A DNA stretch of 64,000 bases from Aerococcus urinaeequi (GTDB taxonomy: Bacteria > Bacillota > Bacilli > Lactobacillales > Aerococcaceae). Shown one piece after another: positions 2,497 through 15,337 of the stretch (positions are counted from its first letter, which is position 1; every line of letters starts with the position of its first letter). A program made the translations under genes and the position numbers. Under the pieces are notes generated by a model, which was given only the letters and a program-made list of their open reading frames with translations, ran no database searches and was not told the DNA's origin. The stretch spans positions 806,001 to 870,000 of the forward strand of contig NZ_CP014162.1 of NCBI RefSeq assembly GCF_001543205.1, given 5' to 3'.

Positions 2497-2692
2497 CCAA
2501 TCCACTCCTTTTGTATGTGTGTTCGTCCCCTTCATGATAAACCATTTGCGGACAATTGATAAGTAAAGCAGTTTTCTACTATATAAAAGCGTCAACTTCA
2601 CTTACCTTAAAAATTCGATCTAGCATCTCTCTATTCGGAAATATTTCTATTAATTTGAATATTTTAAGTACAATAGCGAAATTATAACCTAT

Positions 2693-3052
2693 AACACATG
2701 TGTTGTTGATGCTATTTTTAATGGAACAGCTGAGTCAGGTTTTGTAACTAAAGCATGGTTAGATGCAGGTACATGTAACTTTTACGTGAAAGATACGCCA
2801 ATCGAAAAGGTGTCTGATTTAGCTGGGAAGAAAATTCGTGTCTAACAATTATCAACCAATGTGACCATGATGAAATTACTTGGCGGTTCTGCTACAGCTA
2901 CGGACTTTAGTGAAGTCTATACAGTCATCCAATCTGTCGTTATCGATAGTGTTGAAAATAACGAATTATCCCTAACGGAAGTTGGATTGTTATCCATTAC
3001 TTACATTTCAGCCATCTCCATGTGGTTGCCGACATTAGTAAGATTGGTTTGA
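2693..3052 (+). pseudogene. Remnant of a TRAP-transporter substrate-binding protein (DctP family)
   Basis: One continuous plus-strand frame encodes a stretch ending in SDLAGKKIRV, an in-frame TAA at 2843-2845, then residues including MMKLLGGSATATDFSEVYT and a VENNELSLT segment. These are hallmark DctP elements: the DLKGLKIRV-type hinge, the LGA..TPM..GEVYT core and the DG.ENN motif. Both ends are missing, the hinge is followed by a stop where Gln is usual, and no DctQ/DctM membrane genes remain. It is a clear fossil of a lost dicarboxylate or sialic-acid-type transporter. Confidence 0.8.
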
Positions 3053-3103
3053 TAGCATTTAATTAATCCTTGAAAAATGACTACTGCACTTTAATTTAAT
3101 CAG

Positions 3104-3171
3104 AACCGGATAGCCAGTCCTCTCATTGAGCTACTTCAAGCTGTCATGTGAACACTCGTTATCCGGTTTTT
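3104..3171 (+). terminator. Hairpin with CCGGATA stem, terminator-like
   Basis: AACCGGATA pairs with TATCCGGTT across about 47 bases and a run of T follows. It lies just left of the defence island. A hairpin with the same CCGGATAG/TATCCGG stem lies just right of the island at 15396-15469. It could be the terminator of the decayed DctP locus or a copy of a mobile or regulatory RNA. Confidence 0.5.
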
Positions 3172-3193
3172 GATCTTTCTTTATACGTAAGCC

Positions 3194-3240
3194 AAAGACC
3201 GTAGACTTCAATTGAAATCAACTTGAAGTCTACGGTCTTT
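3194..3240 (-). terminator. Terminator hairpin at the end of the island
   Basis: AAAGACCGTAGACTTCAA (3194-3211) pairs perfectly with TTGAAGTCTACGGTCTTT (3223-3240). It follows the last island gene, which stops at 3256. The T tract is better on the plus strand, so it may serve both directions. Confidence 0.7.
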
Positions 3241-3255
3241 TAGGTTTATTATGTT

Positions 3256-4854
3256 TTAATTTTTGTGATTAACGTTACTTACCCACCCAATTGCATCTTT
3301 AGGTGGTTTATTCTCATCTATCCAAATAAATTCAAAATAAATAACTTTGGGATTCTTTTCGTATTTTGATAAACGAACTGCATTAATGCCTAATTCATTT
3401 AAACGTTTATCTGTTAATGGTTCATATTCATCTAATTGAAATACTTCTCTTAAAATCCACTCACCAAGAATACCTTGATTAGCTATTGATTGAATACTTT
3501 TCCCGTTGTCTTGATTAATATAGGCTTCAATTTGATTACCACTCGGTAGAAATTCCAAAGTAAAAGTTCTCTCTTCCTTTGGCAAAGCTAATTTACTTGA
3601 ATTACCTTTAAATGTCCCAATAGACTTACCGAAGAAATCAGGATTCTCAAGATGGAAAGTTTTTGAATTTGGAATTGGAATATACATCTCACTTACTGGA
3701 CGATATACGATTGAAAAAATGTCTTTCTTTAGTTCGTCATTTCCTAAGTGAATAACCAAATCTTTTAAATCAGACCGTTTCTTTTTCATTTCGGCCTTTT
3801 CATCTGCCGTTTTATGGTCTGACAATAGAATAAATTCTAGCGCCCGGCGAATAAAATTCAATTCAGTTATAGGGATGTTACCTTGGAATTTTTGAATAAG
3901 TTTTTCAATTCTATGTTCTCTATAGTTATCTTGCTTACTCATTTTTGGCCCACCATCAAAGGCGTTGTAACCAGAATTTTCTTCAACTTTACCATTCATA
4001 TTTGGAATCATCCACGAAACTGATTCTGTTGGTTGAACGTCAACTTCTTCTTCAAAAGCATACATATGCAAATTTTGAAAGAATTTAAAAGCATTATCTA
4101 CATACTCAACATCCCAGGAATCTACAACTATTTCACGATTATTGAAAGCCATCAATAGTTGAGAGTCTGCAGAAGTATATTTATACACATGAATACCATC
4201 TGTAAACTTAAAATTTTGTGGTTTGTTCATAGGATCTAAAATTTTTATATTTTCTATATCAATGGGCGCATAATTAGTTTCACCCACATAAATTTTAGGC
4301 GTAGTCCCTTTTTTAGTTGGCATTAGGACATGATATATCATTTCTATATCATCGGCGCTCCCATCGAAACCTTTTGCTAGGGCTTTAGATGAGGCAATAC
4401 GATCATTTCTTACTTCAGCAATTTTTTGGGCTAATGCTAAATAGTGTTCTTCATAGTTTTTAGGATCAACGTCATTATCGCTGTCTTCTCTAGGTATATA
4501 TCTTAAATTAGCTATCGCTTTATTAATTAAGCTATCCCAATTATCTTCACGACTAATCGCTTTAAATTGAGCAATTTTTTGATCTCCCGAGGTAATACCA
4601 AAGGACTTTATACCTACTAGAAATTTCTGACCATCAGACAAATTTATTGAAGCATCAAAACTAGTGTTTGCAATATCTTCTGCAACTGCATTGAAAGCTT
4701 TTTGAAATGCGGTTTCTTGAAACTTAGAATTCACTATCGGGGCCACTGCTTCTTCATCGCTTGCTTTTTGAGAAAAAGCTTCACTCAGACTAGCAAAATT
4801 GGTCATCAATAGTCTGTAATTATCTTTATCATTGTCGTTCAATAATTCCCACAT
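3256..4854 (-). CDS. Putative restriction endonuclease-like protein paired with a C5 methyltransferase
   Basis: I do not recognise the family with certainty. The N-terminal 100 residues carry E47 (KFQETAF), D67 (SFDASI) and G81-I-K83 (FLVGIKSF) in predicted alternating helix and strand. This could be a degenerate D..xxK nuclease core in which the usual acidic residue before the lysine is replaced. The rest is mixed alpha/beta without an evident motif. The gene lies downstream of a C5 cytosine methyltransferase in the same unit, the usual layout for a type II restriction partner. The start is the ATG at 4854, preceded by GAGGAG; an extension to 4899 has no ribosome binding site. A DNA-recognition or regulatory protein is possible instead. 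Confidence 0.55.
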   Translation of the reverse strand: MWELLNDNDKDNYRLLMTNFASLSEAFSQKASDEEAVAPIVNSKFQETAFQKAFNAVAEDIANTSFDASINLSDGQKFLVGIKSFGITSGDQKIAQFKAISREDNWDSLINKAIANLRYIPREDSDNDVDPKNYEEHYLALAQKIAEVRNDRIASSKALAKGFDGSADDIEMIYHVLMPTKKGTTPKIYVGETNYAPIDIENIKILDPMNKPQNFKFTDGIHVYKYTSADSQLLMAFNNREIVVDSWDVEYVDNAFKFFQNLHMYAFEEEVDVQPTESVSWMIPNMNGKVEENSGYNAFDGGPKMSKQDNYREHRIEKLIQKFQGNIPITELNFIRRALEFILLSDHKTADEKAEMKKKRSDLKDLVIHLGNDELKKDIFSIVYRPVSEMYIPIPNSKTFHLENPDFFGKSIGTFKGNSSKLALPKEERTFTLEFLPSGNQIEAYINQDNGKSIQSIANQGILGEWILREVFQLDEYEPLTDKRLNELGINAVRLSKYEKNPKVIYFEFIWIDENKPPKDAIGWVSNVNHKN

Positions 4855-4929
4855 ATTCGTCTCCTCATAAGCCTTAACCATCCAATATCTACAAAACACT
4901 AATTTCCAAATTTGAATTAGTATGAAATA

Positions 4930-6147
4930 TTACTCATAACTATAGAAAACCATATTTTTATTTTTTTGGACTTGTCGTAAATAGTCTTCATGTCCTAGAA
5001 ACTCAATTTCATTTTCAGAAGCAAATTGTTCTAACGCTTCAATACTATCCACTGTTTTAATTAATTCTGATTGTCCCGAGAAACGACCATTCATGCACGT
5101 ATACATGATAGAGTATAAACCTTCTTGGCTAATATTCGATTCCTGCACTTCATCTGCATAAGTTAGTGCTGAATCAATGTTATTCGCAATTCTTTCAATT
5201 ACAGGAACAACAACACTATTTCCAGCTTGTTTATATAATTGCCCATTTGATATTTCAGGTAACTTAAATGATTCAGGGAATCCTTGAACATTAAATGTTT
5301 CCTTTGGCGTTAACTTTCTGATTCGACCATCATCTGTCAGTATTAAAGGAACGTTATGTCCCCCAGTACCCATATTGGCAGTTAGCGTTGGTACTACACC
5401 AGATTTATTTTCCCGAACGTATTGTCTCCGCCACTGGTAGACAGTATCCTGCGAAACTACTTTTGGTGCTAACTCATCCCAAAACGGTGTTTTTTCTTCA
5501 GAATAATAATAACGCTCTTCCGTCTCAAGCGCGAAATCAATGACGGAATCTAACCCCCGTTCCAAATCAATTTTTTCCGGAAATTCGAAATGATCATATG
5601 CAGCTTTTGATTTGAACCCAACCACATAGATACGTTCCCTATTTTGAGGGATATTTCCATAGTCTTTACCATTCAATACCTTCCACTTAATGTTGTAACC
5701 ACTCATCACAAGTGCTTCACGAATGACCTTGAAAGTATTCCCATGATCATGCGAGACCATGTTTTTAACATTCTCAATCATTACAGCTTCCGGCTGTTTT
5801 TCTTTAATGACTTTTAGCAATTCAAAGAATAAATCACCACGTTCATCCTCAAAACCTTTTCGATATCCCGCGATAGAAAAAGCTTGGCAAGGAAATCCTC
5901 CAACCACTATATCAGCATTCGGAACATCGTCCAAATTTTCGGTAACATCATGTATATCTCGACTATCCAGATTTACATTTGGATAATTCTCTTTATAAGT
6001 AATCGTTGCATTTTTATCAAATTCATTTGCGTACACCACTCTGAACTTGCCAGTATTTTCAAAACCTAGCTCAATTCCTCCTACACCAGAGAAAAAAGCG
6101 TCAATTGTACGCTTACCCTGTGTTGAAGAACTTACAGAATTTGTCAT
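4930..6147 (-). CDS. DNA (cytosine-5) methyltransferase (second of the island)
   Basis: This SAM-dependent enzyme methylates cytosine at C5 in a specific DNA site. The motifs are in order: FSGVGG (I, residues 19-24), GGFPCQAFS with catalytic C87 (IV), ENV at 125-127 (VI), QNRERIY at 168-174 (VIII), then RKLTPKE and a GNSVVVPV motif X. The target-recognition region lies between motifs VIII and IX. About 70 extra residues follow motif X. The start is the ATG at 6147, with a GGGTG Shine-Dalgarno; a GTG at 6156 is the alternative. It has its own extended -10 promoter and a terminator upstream, so it is expressed separately from the main island operon. Confidence 0.93.
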   Translation of the reverse strand: MTNSVSSSTQGKRTIDAFFSGVGGIELGFENTGKFRVVYANEFDKNATITYKENYPNVNLDSRDIHDVTENLDDVPNADIVVGGFPCQAFSIAGYRKGFEDERGDLFFELLKVIKEKQPEAVMIENVKNMVSHDHGNTFKVIREALVMSGYNIKWKVLNGKDYGNIPQNRERIYVVGFKSKAAYDHFEFPEKIDLERGLDSVIDFALETEERYYYSEEKTPFWDELAPKVVSQDTVYQWRRQYVRENKSGVVPTLTANMGTGGHNVPLILTDDGRIRKLTPKETFNVQGFPESFKLPEISNGQLYKQAGNSVVVPVIERIANNIDSALTYADEVQESNISQEGLYSIMYTCMNGRFSGQSELIKTVDSIEALEQFASENEIEFLGHEDYLRQVQKNKNMVFYSYE

Positions 6148-6179
6148 GTAGCTCACCCATTTCTATTTTATATGTTTTA

Positions 6180-6188
6180 ATTATAGCA
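6180..6188 (-). promoter_or_regulatory. Extended -10 promoter of the second methyltransferase unit
   Basis: On the minus strand TGCTATAAT is a perfect extended -10 element about 33 bases before the chosen ATG. No convincing -35 hexamer is seen, as is common for extended -10 promoters. Confidence 0.6.
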
Positions 6189-6210
6189 CATACGTTCGGT
6201 ATAAACTGCC

Positions 6211-6251
6211 CAAAATAAAAAACTTCTCAAAGAATCTACTTTGAGAAGTTT
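6211..6251 (-). terminator. Rho-independent terminator inside the island
   Basis: AAACTTCTCAAAG (6220-6232) and CTTTGAGAAGTTT (6239-6251) form a perfect 13-bp stem. On the minus strand TTTTATTTT follows. It separates the six-gene operon from the methyltransferase plus nuclease-like unit. Confidence 0.85.
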
Positions 6252-6280
6252 GATTTCAAATAATTACTTTTAACTTTAAT

Positions 6281-7579
6281 TTAAGTAGCCGATACTTGTA
6301 TTTCATGAGTTGTTACAAATGTTACTTTGCTACTTTCTGTTAAATACTTATCTTTAATTTCACTAATTTGTGCAAAAATTTGTTCTAATACTTGAACTAC
6401 AATACTGTTCCCTGCCAACTGAATCAATTTCGCTTGATTTAACATATTTCTATTTGAACGAACTTTGAAATTACTTTCCATCATTCTATCGTATTTGTCT
6501 TCATCAAATCCCATCAATAGGAAACACTCTCTCGCGGTTAGGTTTCTATAATTATGATTGACATCGGTTAACTTTTCATCGCCATATGCCACAATCCCTG
6601 AATTGGGATTTCTATCCTGCTTTGTTGTTACAGTTCTAGCCCAGATTCCAGATTTCGCCCTTGAACCAATAGCTAATATTGGATTTTGCTCATATATTTT
6701 CTGTCTTGAAGGCGTAAAAATCGGCGTACTTTGGATAGCTTCGTTGCGATAAACTGGATTTGAATAGTCTAAACGTAGGTAGTCGCTCATTGGTCGAAGG
6801 CTGCTAAAGTCTACTTTAACTTCTTCGAGATTATTATCTTCAAAATACTGAGTGATTGCTTTCGCATTCATAGAATCATGAGCTAATACACTTATCATAT
6901 AAGTTCTCACTCTTGATTGGGGCACATTGAAATTACGAGCATCTAAAGTATATACTTGATTCACATATCCAAGACCTTCAAGAAAGTTTTGCCATTCTCT
7001 AAAGTTACCTATATGTTTAGATGATAATATATTACTTACATTCTCCATTAATAAAAATGATGGTAAGTCTTTCTCAACTTCAACATATTCCTTCAGCAGT
7101 CGCTCAACTTCCCATAATAGTGTGGATCTATTATTAGCATCTCTATCTATCCCACCTGAATTATGGTGCCAATGTCCACTTATAGATAAATCTTGGCAGG
7201 GGAAAGAATAAGTTAATACATCTGCATCAGGTAGCTGTTCTCCATGAACCTTTGTAATATCTACCAAATTATTATTTCTTTCTATTGCACATAAAACAGC
7301 TTTCAAGTGTTGCACACTCATTGAACTTAACGCTCTATCCGTTATAGGTTCTTTACCATCGTTTGACAAACTATATTCTCTCAATTTCTCAATAAGCGAT
7401 TCTCGATTATGGAATCTATATGGTGATAAGTCTTGTGGTCCGTTATGCAAAATGTCGTAAGCAAATATAGCACCAATTTCCCATTCTAAAGTGGCAACTA
7501 TATCAAAATCTATTCCTAAATTTTCTAAGGCTTGAGATTGACTTCCGATTCCTGCAAACGACTCTATTACTTTTAGCAA
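6281..7579 (-). CDS. DNA (cytosine-5) methyltransferase (last gene of the six-gene operon)
   Basis: The C5 methyltransferase motifs are visible: FAGIGS (I, 8-13), SFPCQDLS with catalytic C128 (IV), MENV (VI, 178-181), QSRVRTY (VIII, 221-227) and a C-terminal LTARECFLLMGF / GNSIVVQVLE pair (IX, X). A longer insert of about 60 residues between motifs II and IV sets it apart from the other island methyltransferase. The start is TTG at 7579, with GAGGTG five bases upstream. It should protect the host site cleaved by the nuclease encoded upstream. The recognition sequence cannot be read from sequence alone. Confidence 0.93.
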   Translation of the reverse strand: MLKVIESFAGIGSQSQALENLGIDFDIVATLEWEIGAIFAYDILHNGPQDLSPYRFHNRESLIEKLREYSLSNDGKEPITDRALSSMSVQHLKAVLCAIERNNNLVDITKVHGEQLPDADVLTYSFPCQDLSISGHWHHNSGGIDRDANNRSTLLWEVERLLKEYVEVEKDLPSFLLMENVSNILSSKHIGNFREWQNFLEGLGYVNQVYTLDARNFNVPQSRVRTYMISVLAHDSMNAKAITQYFEDNNLEEVKVDFSSLRPMSDYLRLDYSNPVYRNEAIQSTPIFTPSRQKIYEQNPILAIGSRAKSGIWARTVTTKQDRNPNSGIVAYGDEKLTDVNHNYRNLTARECFLLMGFDEDKYDRMMESNFKVRSNRNMLNQAKLIQLAGNSIVVQVLEQIFAQISEIKDKYLTESSKVTFVTTHEIQVSAT

Positions 7580-7618
7580 ATTATCACCTCTTTTTCTTTC
7601 TATATTTTACAATCTATT

Positions 7619-8683
7619 TTACATTTCCATCAAATAAGTAGTCTTATCAATCCGCTCAAATTTGACCGTTGATAGATTATTCTTTTCAATATCAGCCCTA
7701 GTAATTGGTCTATGGTCTGTGATATCCATATGCTCTCTAACGTAGTCATAAAATTCTTCATCGATTAAAGATAGCTCGTTTTTATTTATACCTGTTAGAC
7801 GCGCTTGATAAACTTTACTATTATCTGCATAAATCTCAAAAATATTATCTTCAGGAAATACCTTATAAAAAGGTAACCCTTGGTTCTCTAGCAATACAGA
7901 TTGCTTTCCTTGAAAAATAGCATTTATACCTGTGTTTTGCCATTTACTTACACTAATCCCCATAATATTTACATAAAACGTATCATAGTAATCAAGGTCC
8001 TTTTGGCCTCTTAAAATAGCCAAATGTTTTTGATGAAAGAAAGTCATAGTATCTTCATCTAACTGATTAGATTTGTTATCCCGTTTACTTTCCGAATAGC
8101 TTTTACCTGTACTTTTTTTACTTTGAGAGGGTACTTCAGAACCATCTCCTTTTTCATTTCTACTAAGGGATAATACGTCTGCATTTCTAGTTAACTGGGA
8201 CGTTAATTCTTTCTCTCTATCATCTTCGAAAAGTGGAATATTACTAAGAACATTAAAATCTGTGCACTTTAACGATAACTGAGCAATCTGCTCGAATAAT
8301 TTATCATTTTTATTGGTATTTATTTTAGTTAGCAACTCTCGTTGTTTAATAAATCCATTTTCTGAAAAATTTGCGGACCCAACATAGGTGTTTATTTCAT
8401 TATTACTACTAAATTCATATAATTTTATATGAGTTGGAATGCCCTTTACTTGGTAGTACACTGAAATAAGTTTATCCTCACTTAACACTTTAAAGTTATT
8501 GTGATTTTGATAGCTTATTCCTTCTTTTGCCATTCCTATAAATACCTCAATTTCAAGATTCGGAAAATCTTGACTTACACGATATAAAAAGCCACTAGAA
8601 ACGTACCCACTAATAATTCTTAATTTAGCAGCTTTCTGTCCTTCTTTTCTAATAATCCTTTGATACAAATTACTGGTTATCAT
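7619..8683 (-). CDS. Phospholipase-D-fold restriction endonuclease, NgoFVII-like
   Basis: The N-terminal half carries an HxK motif (H85-I-K87, in PTHIKLYEF) followed by GSANFSENGF at 102-111. This is the active-site layout of PLD-superfamily nucleases and of the RE_NgoFVII restriction family. A polar, serine- and lysine-rich linker (about residues 165-205) leads to a C-terminal domain that may read DNA. The first 14 bases overlap the end of the upstream gene, so translation is probably coupled. A methyltransferase follows 39 bases downstream. NgoFVII itself is reported to recognise GCSGC, but I cannot tell whether this protein shares that site. Confidence 0.8.
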   Translation of the reverse strand: MITSNLYQRIIRKEGQKAAKLRIISGYVSSGFLYRVSQDFPNLEIEVFIGMAKEGISYQNHNNFKVLSEDKLISVYYQVKGIPTHIKLYEFSSNNEINTYVGSANFSENGFIKQRELLTKINTNKNDKLFEQIAQLSLKCTDFNVLSNIPLFEDDREKELTSQLTRNADVLSLSRNEKGDGSEVPSQSKKSTGKSYSESKRDNKSNQLDEDTMTFFHQKHLAILRGQKDLDYYDTFYVNIMGISVSKWQNTGINAIFQGKQSVLLENQGLPFYKVFPEDNIFEIYADNSKVYQARLTGINKNELSLIDEEFYDYVREHMDITDHRPITRADIEKNNLSTVKFERIDKTTYLMEM

Positions 8684-9368
8684 TTAAGGTCACCAACCGA
8701 TATAAATCACTGACATAATGTTGTATTCCTCCATCAACCAGTTCCGGCGTAATGGTAGGAAGTTTTGCGATATTTAATTTAAGCACCCTTCGAAACATAT
8801 TTCTAGTTGAATCATTATGAGTCGAATATTGGAGCATAATCTCTCGATATAAATCAATATTATATCCTATTCCTGGTCGTTCAAGTAATTGTGCTATGGT
8901 ATCAGTTGTATTAGATTTTAACAACTCGTAAGTTGACTTAACGTCACCTGTCCAAGAAAGATGAATGTACCACCATATTGTTTTTAACCAAATTCTACGG
9001 TGGGATTTGAAATACCTGTCTTCATTTAACCCCCAACGTGCGTGCACTACATCGGGAATCAAACGAATCGAAAGAAACCTCCAAATATTATCATCAGTTG
9101 CCACCCTATTCGTAAAGCCAATTTTTTCATTCAGAATTTCGTAAATCTTTAACCCATATAACAGATCAAATTTATAATCTAATTTGTCAGCATAGTCTAG
9201 CTCGTGTCTATCGTAAATAACATCTCGAGCTTCGATTAGCTTTTCCCTCAATTCTAAAAAATCTTCAGATATATTAGTTGCTACATAAAAATTATTACCC
9301 AAAGACAGTTTAGTAAAATCTTCTTTAGCTATACCTGGATTATAACGTACATTATCCCAATTAATCAT
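8670..9368 (-). CDS. DUF6339-like protein of the defence operon
   Basis: The protein has 232 residues and is helical and rich in Trp, Tyr and Arg. Segments include a WRFLSIRLIPDVV core, a HRRIWLKTIWWYIHLSW stretch and a late Arg-rich MFRRVLKLN helix. The pattern resembles DUF6339 proteins, which I recall as neighbours of restriction genes; this is memory rather than a search. No catalytic motif or membrane segment is evident. It starts one base after the upstream stop, with GGAGGT in front, and overlaps the nuclease gene by 14 bases. It is probably a structural or DNA-contacting subunit. Confidence 0.7.
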   Translation of the reverse strand: MINWDNVRYNPGIAKEDFTKLSLGNNFYVATNISEDFLELREKLIEARDVIYDRHELDYADKLDYKFDLLYGLKIYEILNEKIGFTNRVATDDNIWRFLSIRLIPDVVHARWGLNEDRYFKSHRRIWLKTIWWYIHLSWTGDVKSTYELLKSNTTDTIAQLLERPGIGYNIDLYREIMLQYSTHNDSTRNMFRRVLKLNIAKLPTITPELVDGGIQHYVSDLYRLVTLNDNQ

Positions 9369-9369
9369 A

Positions 9370-10317
9370 CTATTCTACCTCCGTATCAGGTTCTACATGC
9401 CAATACTCCCTCATTGTATTAGCTATGCTTAACAACGAAGTTACATCTATTTCATAAGTTGATACCCAATATTGCACTACCGCTAGAATACTATTTGGTA
9501 AAACATCATCGGATTCAACAGAATATCCTTGGCCTATAATCACTTCCTGAATTATGGCAGTCATTGCTTGCACCATTATATCGGTCATCATTAAGCTACT
9601 AACCCTTTGTTTACCATTTTTAATAGTATCAAACAGTGGATGTGAAATATTCAACATTAAGTTAACGTTTGAGATGTCGAAAGTATCGATATTAGGTTCA
9701 ATCCAATATTTTTCAATCTTCCACAATGGACCTTTTTTATCTTCAAATTCACTCATAGGGAATACTGAGCCATCGCCATCCGTTACAATAGTAATAGCAT
9801 TTAAAAATTCATTATTAAGCACCGTCCCTACAGTTGAAGCTTGTGATGGATTAATTTCTGAAAGTTCAGCTAAATAAATAAAGAAATCTAGATTAACATC
9901 TCCACGTAAACTACTTGGCATAAAATTTTCTGAAAAATCGATTGTAAACGGTACACTAGTGTTTGGAATAGCGCTAATTGGTATAGTTTTTTGAAAATTA
10001 GATTTTTTCGAATGAATATGCACTGCTAAACCAATTAAATTCTCTTCTAAAGTTAATCCATGAATTCCATATAATTTTGAAGGATTATTGAATACACATT
10101 TCTGTTGAATCTCTAGATTGTCTTCTATAGGAGACCATTCACTATCAAATTCATTTATAGTCAAGATGTTGTCAAAATTTTCTTCAACTTCTATATAAAT
10201 TGTTTCTCCCTGATTAGAGTAAGAAAAAACTGGAGTAGCAAAATGTATACCTACCTCTTCAGCAAGTCGCTCAGTTAATTTACTATATAAAGCTATTTGA
10301 TTATTTAATTGACTCAT
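9370..10317 (-). CDS. Unrecognised protein of the defence operon
   Basis: The protein has 315 residues and I do not recognise it. The first 150 residues look beta-rich, with alternating hydrophobics such as ETIYIEVEENF and LIGLAVHIHSKK. The second half is more helical, with segments such as MMTDIMVQAMTAIIQEVI. There is no Walker motif, zinc knuckle, signal peptide or clear nuclease core, though a diverged PD-(D/E)XK fold cannot be excluded. It lies between the GHKL ATPase and the DUF6339-like gene with gaps of 13 bases or less. A fixed stoichiometry in one complex is therefore likely. AGGAGGG precedes the ATG. Confidence 0.8.
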   Translation of the reverse strand: MSQLNNQIALYSKLTERLAEEVGIHFATPVFSYSNQGETIYIEVEENFDNILTINEFDSEWSPIEDNLEIQQKCVFNNPSKLYGIHGLTLEENLIGLAVHIHSKKSNFQKTIPISAIPNTSVPFTIDFSENFMPSSLRGDVNLDFFIYLAELSEINPSQASTVGTVLNNEFLNAITIVTDGDGSVFPMSEFEDKKGPLWKIEKYWIEPNIDTFDISNVNLMLNISHPLFDTIKNGKQRVSSLMMTDIMVQAMTAIIQEVIIGQGYSVESDDVLPNSILAVVQYWVSTYEIDVTSLLSIANTMREYWHVEPDTEVE

Positions 10318-10330
10318 TTATACCCTCCTA

Positions 10331-12346
10331 TCACTTGTTACTCGTCTTAATAGCTAAAGAAGGTAAATAATCCTTATTGTAGAATTCTAAAATTAAATTA
10401 CCCTCTATTTGAACACCTGTGGATAATTTAGTTTCAATTTCTATGTATTCCCCATCCTTCTCATCAAAATAAAATTCTAAGTTGTCGTCTTCAAATTCTT
10501 GAACCGACTCATTCAATTGATCGCCTGAAACTTCTAATAAAATCATATCTTTTATTCGTATAGGAAACGGTATTTGATTTCCCATATTATGCTCCCAATC
10601 AGCTTTAGTCATATACCCATCCTGGATATTTAAATTAACAAATAATTTACTAGTATTTTTTTGTTTGATTGAAATCTTAAATCTCACTTCCGCGATACCT
10701 TCTTCTAAAAGTTGCGTTGAAACTACCACGATATCGGATAATCTATTTTTACTTTTCGCTTGATTATTTGTTTTCGACTTATTTTGTACAGTGGATGCTT
10801 TACCAAAGTTTTTGGGTGGCATCATTAGTTGGCCAAATTTCCGAGACAAACCCGCAACCGCTGAAGAATACCTCTGTCCTGTATTTTCTTGATAATACTC
10901 ATTAATAGAATTACTACTATATTTTTTAATTCTTTGAACAAGAGTAATGCCATCTTCATCAATCCAATTTGCATGATCCGCATTTTCTACTGCTCTAAGA
11001 TATTGTTCTAGATTTATGTAGCCTTTTTCTTGATAGCTTTCATGCAAGCTACCATTAGAGTTGGGAACGAAAACACCAAATAATATATGGTCATCATCTA
11101 TAGATAAATTTTGTGGCACCCATTCACCATCCACACTATACTCTACAATCATCCCTGGCTTTCTAGTGTAGGCAATAACAGATTTCTTCTTACTGATAGC
11201 ATCACTCTCATTATTATTCAAATCACCTATATATTTCATCGGAGAAGGCTTATTATTTGGAGGCGTCATTCTAAAATCATCTCGGTCAAATTCTCCAAAG
11301 GCTAAATATCCAATAGGAATATCATTTTTTTCCATACCTGTTCTAGGTAATTTGATTGGTGAAACAGTAATTTTCTCATCAGCCGATTTTTGATTAACTG
11401 CAGAAGTATATAGTTTTTGTATCACACTGAAAGTAGGTTCCATAGTGATAATTGGAGTATTATTAACTGTACAATTTAGCAATGAGTTTTCTGTATAGTC
11501 TTGATAACTATTGTTCCAAATTCGAGGACTGTACCATCTCTGAACTGCCATTTCAATTTTAGAAGACACATCATCCTCCCAAAAATTGCTATTATCTTCA
11601 ATATCTTTGGCTTCGTTAACATTTTCCTTTATGTATGGAACTATAATCAACGTACCTGTCTCATCATCCGTGTATTGTTGCAATCCAAAAATATCTAAAA
11701 TTTTCCGAATTTTATTAGAATTAGTTATCGGATAGATAATATCGCTATCCTCTTCAGAAAACTCACCCCACCAAGCAATACCACGGCCACTTTGAGGAAG
11801 TAATCTATTATCATTTTTTGGACTTTCAATTAGCGAAACAATTAGTCTCTCTTCATATCCTATCTCTAATTTAACCCGAGTATAGTAAATTACAATTCCA
11901 ACACCCATACGGAAATATGATGTTTTACCTAATCCCCAACTTCCTCCTGCTCCATCCTTTTCTTGATTTTTCCCGATACCAAATACTAATTTTTGAAAGT
12001 TACTTTTATTTAAGGTATCACTATCAGTGGTTCGGAAGTCACCTGTTAAGCCACTAGTATTTTTATCGCTCACCGAAATAAAGGTATTACTTCCTAAATA
12101 CTTAGTATTTAAAATGTCTTGAATTTCTTCAAAATGAACAGATAACTGCTCTGATTCAAATTTTCCTACTGAAAAATCCACTTTGGTTTCTATTTGATTT
12201 TGAAGAGTTGCGTCTAGACTATTCTGAATAGACTCTCTCACCATCAAATCAATCATTGGTAAGCTTTTATTTTGAAGCGATCTTAATATAGCATCTCCAT
12301 CTTGGGACATCCCTTGAGGGTCATTATAAGCAATTTTCAAATCCAC
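10331..12346 (-). CDS. MORC/MutL-like GHKL ATPase of the defence operon
   Basis: The N-terminal 150 residues form a GHKL (Bergerat) ATP-binding fold. They contain RESIQNSLDA at 37-46 with the metal-binding Asn42, a SDKNTSGL motif around D94, and the glycine-rich lid GAGGSWGLGK at 132-141. The roughly 500 residues that follow should include the S5-like transducer and a family-specific C-terminal region. This layout matches the prokaryotic MORC and paraMORC ATPases, which were described from restriction-modification neighbourhoods. ATP-driven dimer closure on DNA is the expected action. The start is GTG at 12346, sharing one base with the upstream stop codon. Confidence 0.85.
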   Translation of the reverse strand: MDLKIAYNDPQGMSQDGDAILRSLQNKSLPMIDLMVRESIQNSLDATLQNQIETKVDFSVGKFESEQLSVHFEEIQDILNTKYLGSNTFISVSDKNTSGLTGDFRTTDSDTLNKSNFQKLVFGIGKNQEKDGAGGSWGLGKTSYFRMGVGIVIYYTRVKLEIGYEERLIVSLIESPKNDNRLLPQSGRGIAWWGEFSEEDSDIIYPITNSNKIRKILDIFGLQQYTDDETGTLIIVPYIKENVNEAKDIEDNSNFWEDDVSSKIEMAVQRWYSPRIWNNSYQDYTENSLLNCTVNNTPIITMEPTFSVIQKLYTSAVNQKSADEKITVSPIKLPRTGMEKNDIPIGYLAFGEFDRDDFRMTPPNNKPSPMKYIGDLNNNESDAISKKKSVIAYTRKPGMIVEYSVDGEWVPQNLSIDDDHILFGVFVPNSNGSLHESYQEKGYINLEQYLRAVENADHANWIDEDGITLVQRIKKYSSNSINEYYQENTGQRYSSAVAGLSRKFGQLMMPPKNFGKASTVQNKSKTNNQAKSKNRLSDIVVVSTQLLEEGIAEVRFKISIKQKNTSKLFVNLNIQDGYMTKADWEHNMGNQIPFPIRIKDMILLEVSGDQLNESVQEFEDDNLEFYFDEKDGEYIEIETKLSTGVQIEGNLILEFYNKDYLPSLAIKTSNK

Positions 12347-15132
12347 TAATCCAATACCTCCTCATGTTCTTCATCAATTAAGTCATCTTTAATTTTTAAT
12401 TTGGCAGAAATTCTTTTTACATGTACTCCATTCACGGTCTTACCCGGTAACATAATATTTATCCCTATAATATCTTCTTTAAAATCTAAAGGAGATCTCT
12501 GACTAGATTCTTTATTTTCTTTTTTGAAATTAGTTGGGGTACTATTTTTATCAACCTTATAGATTAACAGTTGAGGAACACTACCGTACCCGTGCAATTC
12601 TCTTAAATTCTTAATTGTTTTTATTTTTACATCTTTTCGTTCTTTTTCTGGTAAATCTTTATCAATATCAGAAAGTAAGTCAGATGGGCTTCTAAGAACA
12701 CCAATTCCCGCTACTTCGCCATTACGTAAATCAACCAATTTTGAACGCGTAATACTACTTGGACTATAACCATGAATATTCCAATAATTTGATTCGTTGG
12801 TATCTTGTATCTTAGTTTCTTCGACTACTCCTTTTGAAACAAATACAACCGACCATTTATCAATAGCAACTTTATTCGTCTCAGCCCATTCAATCAATGC
12901 TGGAAGACTAGCCATTTTTGTTGCATTCGGGTAAACTTCATATTTTTGTAAGAAGTCTTTAACTAAATCAATTTCAACGTCACGCCATATCATATACTTG
13001 GAATTTAACTTGGGTGAATCTAATGAGTTCAGAAAATTTTTGGTTTCTTCTAAATTATGCACTAATATTTCTTCACTATTTTCAAAGTACGTTGTTTGAG
13101 AATTAAATCCTGCAAAATCAAATTCTATAGGTCGCGCTGATTGCATTTTATTATTAGCTGTTACCTTAATTAACTCTCTATCAGGCGAATATTTTACTGC
13201 TGGTGCATAATCAGATGGCGTCTGACCTCGCTCAGCAAAATCCTTTATTTCTTCCTTCAGCTCTTCATCCATTTGTGATAAAAAGATAAATCTATCACAG
13301 GATTGATGATCTAGCCATACTCGTGGGAAGATTTCGTATCCCTTTCTATAGCCAAACCATCGTCCCATTTGCATTAAAGTATCGGCTTGACTTGTTGACC
13401 TTAAGAAATACGTTGTTGTAAGCCCCTCTAATGTTAACCCTCTAGATAATGTGTTTCCACCAACAACAATAAATGCGGGGGCAATATCCTGCTCGCGTTC
13501 TGGATACACTAACCTGATAATCTGATCACTAGCAACAGCCCGACTATTATCAATCGCTATATGAATTCCATTATGATAAATAGGCTCGCCTAGCTCTCCA
13601 ATTGGGATATTCGATACGTAATCTATTTCCGGTAATGTAAAAATTTTAATTAATTGTTTTTCCACTAAATGCCAACTTGGATACTCTGGTACTTTTTCTT
13701 TTGCAGAATAATCCTTCATTTCTTTCAAAAAAGAATCTCTACTAAATTCATCTTGCTCATTTAGATATAAATCTTTTATAGAAGGTAATATTTGTTCAAA
13801 ATTTTTCTGCAAATAGCGTAAATACTCACTAATCTTATCTGACACAATTTGATGATGATCCGTTTGGAAGCTTGTATGGACCAACATTGATATAGGCTTT
13901 CTATAATTTAACTCGCGCATAGCAGCAACTGAAATCAAGAACCAATGGATTGATTGAATAAAACTTTCTGGCAAATCATCAGTGGTTTTCCCTTTCTGAA
14001 TGTCTCTCACCACGTTGCGGTCAGCATTATTTACCCTACGGTAGATAGGTATTTTAGGACTAGTATCCGGTTCCGTTAAACCAAATATTTCCTGCGGACC
14101 AATGTAATCTTCAGACGGCTCTAACAAAGTTATAAAATCTTTTGGATATAATGAATCTTCGTGCGTATCGTTCAGAATATTCGCAAAAGGAGTGGCTGTA
14201 TAAGCTATATAGTTCATTGCTTTAAACCCTTTAAAATCGACGATATCACGAATTAATTGATTAATACGAGTGCTATCTTCTTCTTCTATTTTCTTAGTAT
14301 TAATACTAGCCTGATCTGCTTCATCGTCTATAATTAAGATTTTCAATTGTTTGGCTTTATTTTTATCTTGAGTTAGCCACTGGAAGAGTTTTTTTAATCT
14401 ACTACTGTTTTTTAATGCTACAGTAAAGTAACGATCTTTATCACCTTCACCTAAATTAAAGTTACTGATATCCTGGCCAACTGCTCGAGAGCTAATAGAA
14501 GGGTTATCCACTTGGATCCAATGAAGATTCCCACGACCAGAATAGGTCATATCTTTATACAAACGAGCAGACGTTTGTTGTCTCAAATTCTCTATTACTC
14601 CCGATAATACAATAAAATAGTTGAAGCCTAAATCTGCTGCCATAGCCATCAAACCAGCCATATTAGCGGTCTTACCTGATTGTACATTACCAACAACCAG
14701 ACCTTTAACAGGTAACTCATCACTTTGTACATTATCCATACTAAGTGAACGTAAAATTTCAATTGAGGATTTTTCGATTGAGTAAATTGATTTTACAGAA
14801 AACCCTTTTCCTTCTAACCCTTTTCTATATAGTTGCCAAGCAGAGGCTCTTTCATTAGAAATACTTGCTTCACTCTTTATGTCACTATCAAGTTTGATTA
14901 CCTGGGTGGATTCATATAATTCTATTTGGTTTTCAATCAGTTGATACCAAATAGGCTCTGTTAAGCCTTTCAAGCTATTATTTTTTCCAACTATATCAAC
15001 TTTCATTGCAAAATCAATTGGAAGATCTTCATAAATTTTTATATTTCGTACGTCATCCCAATTTCGATGTTCTCTAAATTGCGTCATAATCCAATTTTTT
15101 ATTTCATTATATTCAGAATTTGTAATATCCAA
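12346..15132 (-). CDS. Z1-domain superfamily II helicase-like ATPase
   Basis: The first gene of the island operon encodes 928 residues. The motor motifs are clear: Walker A GNVQSGKT at 148-155, motif II DDEAD at 269-273, motif III-like TATPF at 312-316, then GGNTLSRGLTLEG and QMGRWFGYR in the second half. The segment from about residue 390 to 630 matches the Z1 region that accompanies SF2 domains in restriction loci. It probably moves on DNA and works with the GHKL ATPase. The start is TTG at 15132 with GAGGTG seven bases upstream. A promoter lies at 15182-15210. Confidence 0.88.
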   Translation of the reverse strand: MDITNSEYNEIKNWIMTQFREHRNWDDVRNIKIYEDLPIDFAMKVDIVGKNNSLKGLTEPIWYQLIENQIELYESTQVIKLDSDIKSEASISNERASAWQLYRKGLEGKGFSVKSIYSIEKSSIEILRSLSMDNVQSDELPVKGLVVGNVQSGKTANMAGLMAMAADLGFNYFIVLSGVIENLRQQTSARLYKDMTYSGRGNLHWIQVDNPSISSRAVGQDISNFNLGEGDKDRYFTVALKNSSRLKKLFQWLTQDKNKAKQLKILIIDDEADQASINTKKIEEEDSTRINQLIRDIVDFKGFKAMNYIAYTATPFANILNDTHEDSLYPKDFITLLEPSEDYIGPQEIFGLTEPDTSPKIPIYRRVNNADRNVVRDIQKGKTTDDLPESFIQSIHWFLISVAAMRELNYRKPISMLVHTSFQTDHHQIVSDKISEYLRYLQKNFEQILPSIKDLYLNEQDEFSRDSFLKEMKDYSAKEKVPEYPSWHLVEKQLIKIFTLPEIDYVSNIPIGELGEPIYHNGIHIAIDNSRAVASDQIIRLVYPEREQDIAPAFIVVGGNTLSRGLTLEGLTTTYFLRSTSQADTLMQMGRWFGYRKGYEIFPRVWLDHQSCDRFIFLSQMDEELKEEIKDFAERGQTPSDYAPAVKYSPDRELIKVTANNKMQSARPIEFDFAGFNSQTTYFENSEEILVHNLEETKNFLNSLDSPKLNSKYMIWRDVEIDLVKDFLQKYEVYPNATKMASLPALIEWAETNKVAIDKWSVVFVSKGVVEETKIQDTNESNYWNIHGYSPSSITRSKLVDLRNGEVAGIGVLRSPSDLLSDIDKDLPEKERKDVKIKTIKNLRELHGYGSVPQLLIYKVDKNSTPTNFKKENKESSQRSPLDFKEDIIGINIMLPGKTVNGVHVKRISAKLKIKDDLIDEEHEEVLD

Positions 15133-15181
15133 ATTAATTCACCTCAGAATAAGTCGATTTCACTAATTTTTGGTTAGTATT

Positions 15182-15210
15182 GTTATAATCCCTTCTATAT
15201 ATTGTATGAA
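15182..15210 (-). promoter_or_regulatory. Promoter of the six-gene defence operon
   Basis: On the minus strand TTCATA and TATAAC are separated by exactly 17 bases, with the -10 about 50 bases before the TTG start of the Z1 gene. It is the best sigma-A-like site in the gap. Confidence 0.6.
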
Positions 15211-15337
15211 TTAATATTAATATTAACAAGGTATTTTTGATTTTAATTTAACTCTTATTCCCTAGTCAGGAATAGTTTCAAAGAAAGTATTTTTCTACTT
15301 ATCTTCCCTATCAAAACTATCTAACTAGCTTAAAAAC

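What the first reader, a model, noticed from the sequence alone, without database searches (positions are those of the whole stretch)
6281..15132. Six-gene MORC/Z1 system with a PLD nuclease and a C5 methyltransferase
One operon encodes a Z1/SF2 helicase-like ATPase, a MORC-like GHKL ATPase, two poorly characterised proteins, a NgoFVII-like PLD nuclease and a cytosine methyltransferase. Several genes overlap and a shared promoter precedes them. Prokaryotic MORC relatives were proposed from gene neighbourhoods to work in restriction-modification (Iyer, Abhiman and Aravind), but this gene set does not match any defence system I know by name. A restriction system in which two ATPases recruit a PLD nuclease would be mechanistically unusual.
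Basis: partly seen in the sequence, partly recalled or inferred. Interest (0 to 1): 0.85.

Follow-up and report, generated by a model that had tools for sequence, protein, structure and literature searches.

The report
MORC-helicase restriction system with swapped nuclease
A conserved six-gene bacterial operon that most likely cuts unmethylated foreign DNA, in which a known four-gene, two-ATPase core has exchanged its usual nuclease for a different type (phospholipase-D-like), probably once, and kept a protective DNA methylase.

Summary
Six overlapping or closely spaced minus-strand genes (15132-6281) encode an SF2-Z1 helicase, a GHKL ATPase, a protein with no family match (P6), a DUF6339-like protein, a PLD nuclease and a C5 methyltransferase (M2). 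A hairpin terminator at 6251-6220 closes the unit. The same order recurs in 14 other fetched loci of Lactobacillales and Bacillales, plus a frameshifted and a truncated copy. In about 50 further loci the first four genes are the same, but a putative PD-(D/E)XK protein (DUF4420) replaces PLD. On a tree of the four core genes the 16 PLD-type loci form one clade (support 1.0): the nuclease slot was switched once. The GHKL protein is a paraMORC2 (ExxxH in 69 of 69), not a MORC proper. The broad system was predicted by Iyer et al. 2008. The PLD protein has the PLD + B3-like layout of R.NgoAVII/R.CglI, whose partner is also an SF2-Z1 ATPase. No PADLOC, Pfam or NCBIfam model describes the six-gene set; MZA, the nearest named system, fails its tests. 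Best reading: an ATP-dependent restriction-modification system, a new variant of a known kind. The island (33% GC against 41%) also holds a separate type II RM pair (3256-6156). Function is inferred, not shown.

The parts
12346..15132 (-). SF2 helicase-like ATPase with Z1 domain (928 aa); Walker A GxVQSGKT, DDEAD box, TATP and Z1 motif ADTLMQMGRWFGY intact
   Evidence: PF10593 E 1e-54; PADLOC MzaC E 7e-62 and Helicase_II E 8e-45; catalytic motifs nearly invariant in 69 loci
10331..12346 (-). GHKL ATPase of the paraMORC2 type (671 aa)
   Evidence: E38/N42/D45, D94/G99, GGSWGLGKT conserved in 68/69 (one gap); ExxxH (E454, H458) in 69/69 as described for paraMORC2 in PMC2292703; PADLOC PDC-M33A E 2e-9
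9370..10317 (-). P6, 315 aa conserved core protein, no family; predicted N-terminal Ig-like beta-sandwich and helical C-terminus; no nuclease motif found
   Evidence: linked to the GHKL gene in almost all loci
8670..9368 (-). DUF6339-like protein (232 aa), all-helical; invariant D68, W96, R111, R125, W133, R164
   Evidence: PF19866 E 1.3e-3 here, 23 of 64 members match; AF2 pLDDT 95, no PDB relative; conservation
7619..8683 (-). Restriction endonuclease subunit: PLD domain (H85xK87, GSxN105, E116) plus C-terminal B3-like domain
   Evidence: PF09565 E 3e-23; H, K, N, E invariant in 15/15; C-terminus aligns with R.NgoAVII B3 (E 0.21, only PDB hit) and with the neighbouring B3 enzyme (hhalign E 1.2e-4)
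6281..7579 (-). M2, C5-cytosine methyltransferase (432 aa); motifs SFPCQ, ENV, QSRVR, GNS present; TRD core TTKQDRNPNSG
   Evidence: PF00145 E 4e-51; present in every PLD-type operon that is not cut off; TRD conservation
6220..6251 (-). intrinsic terminator closing the six-gene unit
4930..6156 (-). M1, separate Bsp6I-type C5 methyltransferase (site probably GCNGC-like); not part of the six-gene core but often beside it
3256..4899 (-). Partner restriction enzyme of M1 (called REB3 here) with C-terminal B3 domain (PF20731)
   Evidence: R.NgoAVII B3 match E 7e-4; found with M1 alone on a Lactobacillus plasmid
2575..15312 (.). Defence island occupying a site where three close relatives carry a Nudix-like gene and a 954-aa gene; GC 33% against 41% in the flanks

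Best explanation
A six-subunit ATP-dependent restriction-modification system. M2 methylates the host site. On unmethylated foreign DNA the SF2-Z1 protein acts as the DNA motor; the paraMORC2 GHKL ATPase closes as an ATP-gated clamp or loop-former; P6 and DUF6339 are structural or coupling subunits. Together they activate a PLD-B3 nuclease that dimerises to build one active site and cuts the DNA, as in CglI. The PLD-B3 protein took over the slot that a DUF4420 PD-(D/E)XK protein occupies in the wider family, once, in an ancestor of the Lactobacillales/Bacillales versions. Shown here: gene content, conservation, motif integrity, single switch of nuclease type, island insertion. Inferred: methylation-guarded cleavage, translocation, clamp role, complex formation.
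For: Constant four-gene core with a nuclease gene downstream; PLD clade monophyletic with support 1.0; catalytic motifs of both ATPases and of PLD intact; M2 in every PLD-type operon that is not cut off; PLD-B3 plus SF2-Z1 plus C5 MTase is the experimentally studied CglI/NgoAVII set; island with foreign GC and a second RM at the same site; Iyer et al. predicted RM function for such operons.
Against: No functional data. Eleven long DUF4420-type loci have no methyltransferase nearby, so the core may not always work as a classical RM. P6 and DUF6339 have no assignable function.
Confidence: 0.72

Rival explanations
1. An exclusion or abortive system of the MZA kind in which the methyltransferase is an accessory mark-writer and the nuclease is triggered by a phage cue rather than by an unmethylated site.
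For: Z1 is nearest to MzaC in PADLOC and NCBIfam; DUF4420 of sister loci matches MzaD weakly; 11 sister loci lack a methyltransferase.
Against: M2 is present in every PLD-type operon that is not cut off; no AIPR or DUF4420 here; MzaC score is far below the NCBIfam cut-off (279 against 1500).
Confidence: 0.18
2. M1 plus the B3 enzyme (3256-6156) are part of the same machine, so the system has eight genes with two nucleases and two methylases sharing one motor.
For: The B3 enzyme adjoins the system in 5 of 7 carriers among 100 relatives, while it occurs anywhere in only 8 of 93 non-carriers (Fisher p 3e-4); also near distant versions L093, L081, L038.
Against: Behind a terminator here; orientation varies between genomes; the pair stands alone on a Lactobacillus plasmid, and the enzyme occurs in 8 genomes without the six-gene system.
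Confidence: 0.12
3. A decayed or silent island without activity in this strain.
For: No expression data; low GC and insertion suggest acquisition from elsewhere.
Against: All eight reading frames are full length and the catalytic motifs examined are intact.
Confidence: 0.05

Closest known systems
MORC/paraMORC restriction operons, third type (Iyer, Abhiman and Aravind 2008, PMC2292703)
   Same: SF2 helicase with Z1 domain (DThhQXuRhFG motif), paraMORC2 GHKL ATPase with ExxxH, cytosine methylase; sister loci often have a Vsr neighbour
   Different: The third-type operons are described with a PD-(D/E)XK protein; here that slot holds a PLD-B3 nuclease. P6 and DUF6339 are not recognisable by name in the text read.
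CglI / NgoAVII ATP-dependent restriction systems (PMC4267653, PMC5737866)
   Same: PLD-B3 nuclease subunit, SF2-Z1 ATPase subunit, C5 methyltransferase
   Different: CglI has three genes and one ATPase; here a GHKL ATPase and two further conserved proteins accompany them, and the SF2-Z1 protein is longer (928 aa; the PADLOC helicase model it matches has 621 positions)
MZA (MutL, Z1, DUF, AIPR; Gao et al. 2020, from own knowledge; models in PADLOC/NCBIfam)
   Same: GHKL plus Z1 ATPase pair; Z1 nearest to MzaC
   Different: No MzaD or AIPR homologue, GHKL does not match MzaB, methylase and PLD present
BfiI and stand-alone NgoFVII-type PLD-B3 enzymes (own knowledge)
   Same: PLD-B3 layout with a single HxK..N..E site per monomer
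   Different: BfiI works without any ATPase; related stand-alone PLD genes sit beside some DUF4420-type loci but fall outside the groups of operon copies

Membership tests
paraMORC2-Z1 restriction operons (Iyer 2008) | SF2 helicase with Z1 domain | tested here: met
   PF10593 E 1e-54; motif residues invariant or nearly so in 69 loci
paraMORC2-Z1 restriction operons (Iyer 2008) | GHKL ATPase with ExxxH motif (paraMORC2) | tested here: met
   E454 and H458 in 69/69, GHKL motifs intact
paraMORC2-Z1 restriction operons (Iyer 2008) | associated PD-(D/E)XK endonuclease (NRE/DUF4420) | tested here: not met
   slot filled by PLD (PF09565); DUF4420 present in 50 sister loci
paraMORC2-Z1 restriction operons (Iyer 2008) | DNA cytosine methylase in operon | tested here: met
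   PF00145 E 4e-51
CglI/NgoAVII | PLD-B3 endonuclease subunit | tested here: met
   PF09565; B3-like C-terminus supported by hhalign E 1e-4 and a marginal PDB hit
CglI/NgoAVII | SF2-Z1 ATPase subunit | tested here: met
CglI/NgoAVII | three-gene system without further core genes | tested here: not met
   GHKL, P6 and DUF6339 accompany the PLD-M2 pair in every PLD-type operon found (the loci were found through the GHKL gene)
CglI/NgoAVII | ATP-dependent site-specific cleavage next to an asymmetric site | not testable with these tools
   needs purified proteins
MZA | MzaC (Z1) above curated cut-off | tested here: not met
   278.8 bits against 1500
MZA | MzaB, MzaD and MzaE (AIPR) present | tested here: not met
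   no PADLOC hit of these names among the six proteins at E 0.1
eukaryote-like MORC proper | GhXhhpXXRhl signature in S5 domain | not tested
   assigned to paraMORC2 by the ExxxH motif only
any PADLOC 2.0.0 / NCBIfam named system | model matches that amount to a named system with this gene set | tested here: not met
   only single-protein hits such as MTase_II, REase_II, Helicase_II, MzaC, PDC-M33A

The most novel reading that the evidence does not exclude
The four-gene core (SF2-Z1, paraMORC2, P6, DUF6339) is a general DNA-sensing and licensing machine with a plug-in nuclease slot: it accepts a PD-(D/E)XK or a PLD-B3 enzyme with the same M2-type methylase (same slot order and shared TRD core TTKQDRNPNSG). 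Target choice may then reside in the core rather than in the nuclease, unlike any restriction system I know of.
Probability: 0.3. Interest if true: 0.7.

Novelty: new variant of a known kind. Interest (0 to 1): 0.5.

Why it matters
Iyer et al. propose that eukaryotic MORC chromatin ATPases came from such prokaryotic systems, yet for paraMORC2 the literature read here gives only neighbourhood predictions. This locus gives a compact, intact system in which the nuclease has a well-studied relative (CglI), so what a GHKL ATPase adds to an SF2-Z1 driven restriction enzyme becomes directly testable. The switch of nuclease on a constant core also offers a natural experiment on where restriction specificity lies.

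Tried and rejected
Membership in MZA: rejected on scores and missing parts. P6 as the RE-fold nuclease of Iyer's operons: rejected, no E-D-ExK pattern, beta-sandwich model, and DUF4420 is a separate gene in sister loci. P6 fold matches (RhoGDI, PDE-delta, Z up to 7.9, rmsd 3.4 over 120 residues; AlkC Ig-like domain Z 6.6) are in the range of common beta-sandwich arrangements and were not used. DUF6339 gave no fold match. No solved relative of the GHKL or Z1 protein by sequence. PHROGs: no matches for P6, DUF6339 or GHKL. No PLD copy on PLSDB plasmids, and only a 20% partial GHKL match. The site of M2 could not be read from neighbours: plasmid methylases are at most about 32% identical and only one on an Aerococcus tenax element shares the TRD core. 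The N. gonorrhoeae M1 relative is not the NgoAVII locus. A literature search for mza gene names hit unrelated journals.

Full report
Observation. Six minus-strand ORFs (15132 down to 6281) are present as described, all full length and with start/stop overlaps or short gaps. Domain searches give Z1 (PF10593, E 1e-54), C5 methylase (PF00145, E 4e-51), NgoFVII PLD (PF09565, E 3e-23) and a weak DUF6339 match; the GHKL protein and P6 have no Pfam family. A 13-bp hairpin with a T-run (6251-6220) follows the last gene. Promoter-like hexamers upstream of 15132 exist but are weak evidence.

Conservation. Searching 100 related genomes with the GHKL protein found 7 with a match including the window's own. 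All six other copies lie in loci with the same gene order; five are complete through M2 and one is cut by a contig end. A scan of GTDB genomes with the GHKL alignment gave 79 loci from Bacillota, Pseudomonas, Massilia, Duganella, Chlorobi, Ignavibacteria and an archaeal MAG; some of these are the same genomes as. Z1-GHKL-P6-DUF6339 is the order in nearly all. Of 67 loci long enough to judge, 65 have the four-gene core plus a PLD or DUF4420 nuclease. P6 itself is rare: 1 of 300 genomes of the class, the window's own.

Nuclease switch. In 50 loci a ~300 aa DUF4420 protein (PF14390, putative PD-(D/E)XK; four representatives tested) follows the core, directly or after a methylase. In 15 plus the window it is the PLD protein. 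On a tree of the four concatenated core proteins the 16 PLD-type loci are one clade with support 1.0, next to an Oceanobacillus DUF4420-type locus. Gene order DUF6339-nuclease-M2 is shared with three clostridial DUF4420 loci (L048, L054, L058). M2 relatives in DUF4420 loci are 41-49% identical and keep the TRD core TTKQDRNPNSG. That the methylase stayed while the nuclease changed is an inference: the sister locus itself has a different methylase and no M2.

Proteins. SF2, Z1 and GHKL motifs are essentially invariant in 69 loci; the GHKL protein has the ExxxH pattern in 69 of 69, which Iyer et al. give as the mark of paraMORC2. The PLD protein keeps H85, K87, N105 and E116 in 15 of 15. From own knowledge this is the H-K-N-E spacing of BfiI. 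Its C-terminal domain aligns with the B3 domain of R.NgoAVII (only PDB hit, E 0.21) and with the B3 domain of the neighbouring enzyme (hhalign E 1.2e-4), so it has the R.NgoAVII/R.CglI layout. P6 is predicted as a beta-sandwich plus helices, DUF6339 as all-helical; neither has a clear structural relative.

Mechanism. CglI, with a PLD-B3 dimer and an SF2-Z1 dimer, recognises an asymmetric site, hydrolyses ATP, is proposed to translocate, and cuts when complexes meet. The same two subunit types and a C5 methylase are here, so ATP-dependent, methylation-guarded cleavage is the best-supported reading. Iyer et al. proposed that the GHKL module loops DNA or rearranges the complex; this is adopted here as inference. 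Which subunit reads the site is open: the B3-like domain is a candidate, but it is the less conserved half of the protein (23% against 38% mean pairwise identity).

Surroundings. M1 and a B3-domain restriction enzyme (3256-6156) form a second RM. M1 is 57-60% identical to plasmid methylases, three of which were checked and are paired with Bsp6I-family enzymes (GCNGC from own knowledge). The pair stands alone on a Lactobacillus johnsonii plasmid. The B3 enzyme is present in 13 of 100 related genomes; 5 of these are among the 7 carriers of the six-gene system, where it lies close by (Fisher p 3e-4, not corrected for kinship). In three close relatives the region between 2575 and 15312 is replaced by a Nudix-like gene and a 954-aa gene (names from reading the sequence, not searched). 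GC is 33% in the island and 41% outside.

Comparison. The system fails tests for MZA, meets the tested features of Iyer's third operon type except the PD-(D/E)XK protein, and meets the CglI subunit list with three extra core genes. It is therefore a new variant of a known kind. No functional evidence exists here.

Noticed in passing
window 3256-6156: Second RM pair: Bsp6I-type C5 methylase M1 and a restriction enzyme with B3 domain, often beside the six-gene system.
   Followed up: yes
window 2575-15312: Island replaces a Nudix-like gene and a 954-aa gene found at the same site in three close relatives (L099-L101).
   Followed up: yes
L017, L031, L044 and many other loci, beside Z1: Vsr-type endonuclease gene, often divergent from Z1, near more than half of the long copies of the system; none was seen beside the window copy.
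   Followed up: partly
L093: Archaeal MAG locus with the four-gene core and neither PLD nor DUF4420 in the slot; an M1-like methylase and the B3 enzyme follow.
   Followed up: no
L050 14991-17020: DUF4420 gene followed directly by a PLD gene and a methylase on the same strand: two nuclease types side by side.
   Followed up: partly
L055, L056, L059, L060, L066, L086, L087: DUF4420-type copies without any methyltransferase nearby, so the core may work without modification there.
   Followed up: no
L078: Two tandem copies of the core operon, each with GHKL, P6 and DUF6339, in a Chlorobiaceae MAG.
   Followed up: no
L030: Streptococcus sp. HSISM1 copy with Z1, GHKL and M2 each split into two ORFs, decaying or with sequencing errors.
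   Followed up: no
L105 3836-4798: C5 methylase on an Aerococcus tenax element shares the M2 TRD core (STKQMRVPNSG), a possible lead to the M2 site.
   Followed up: no
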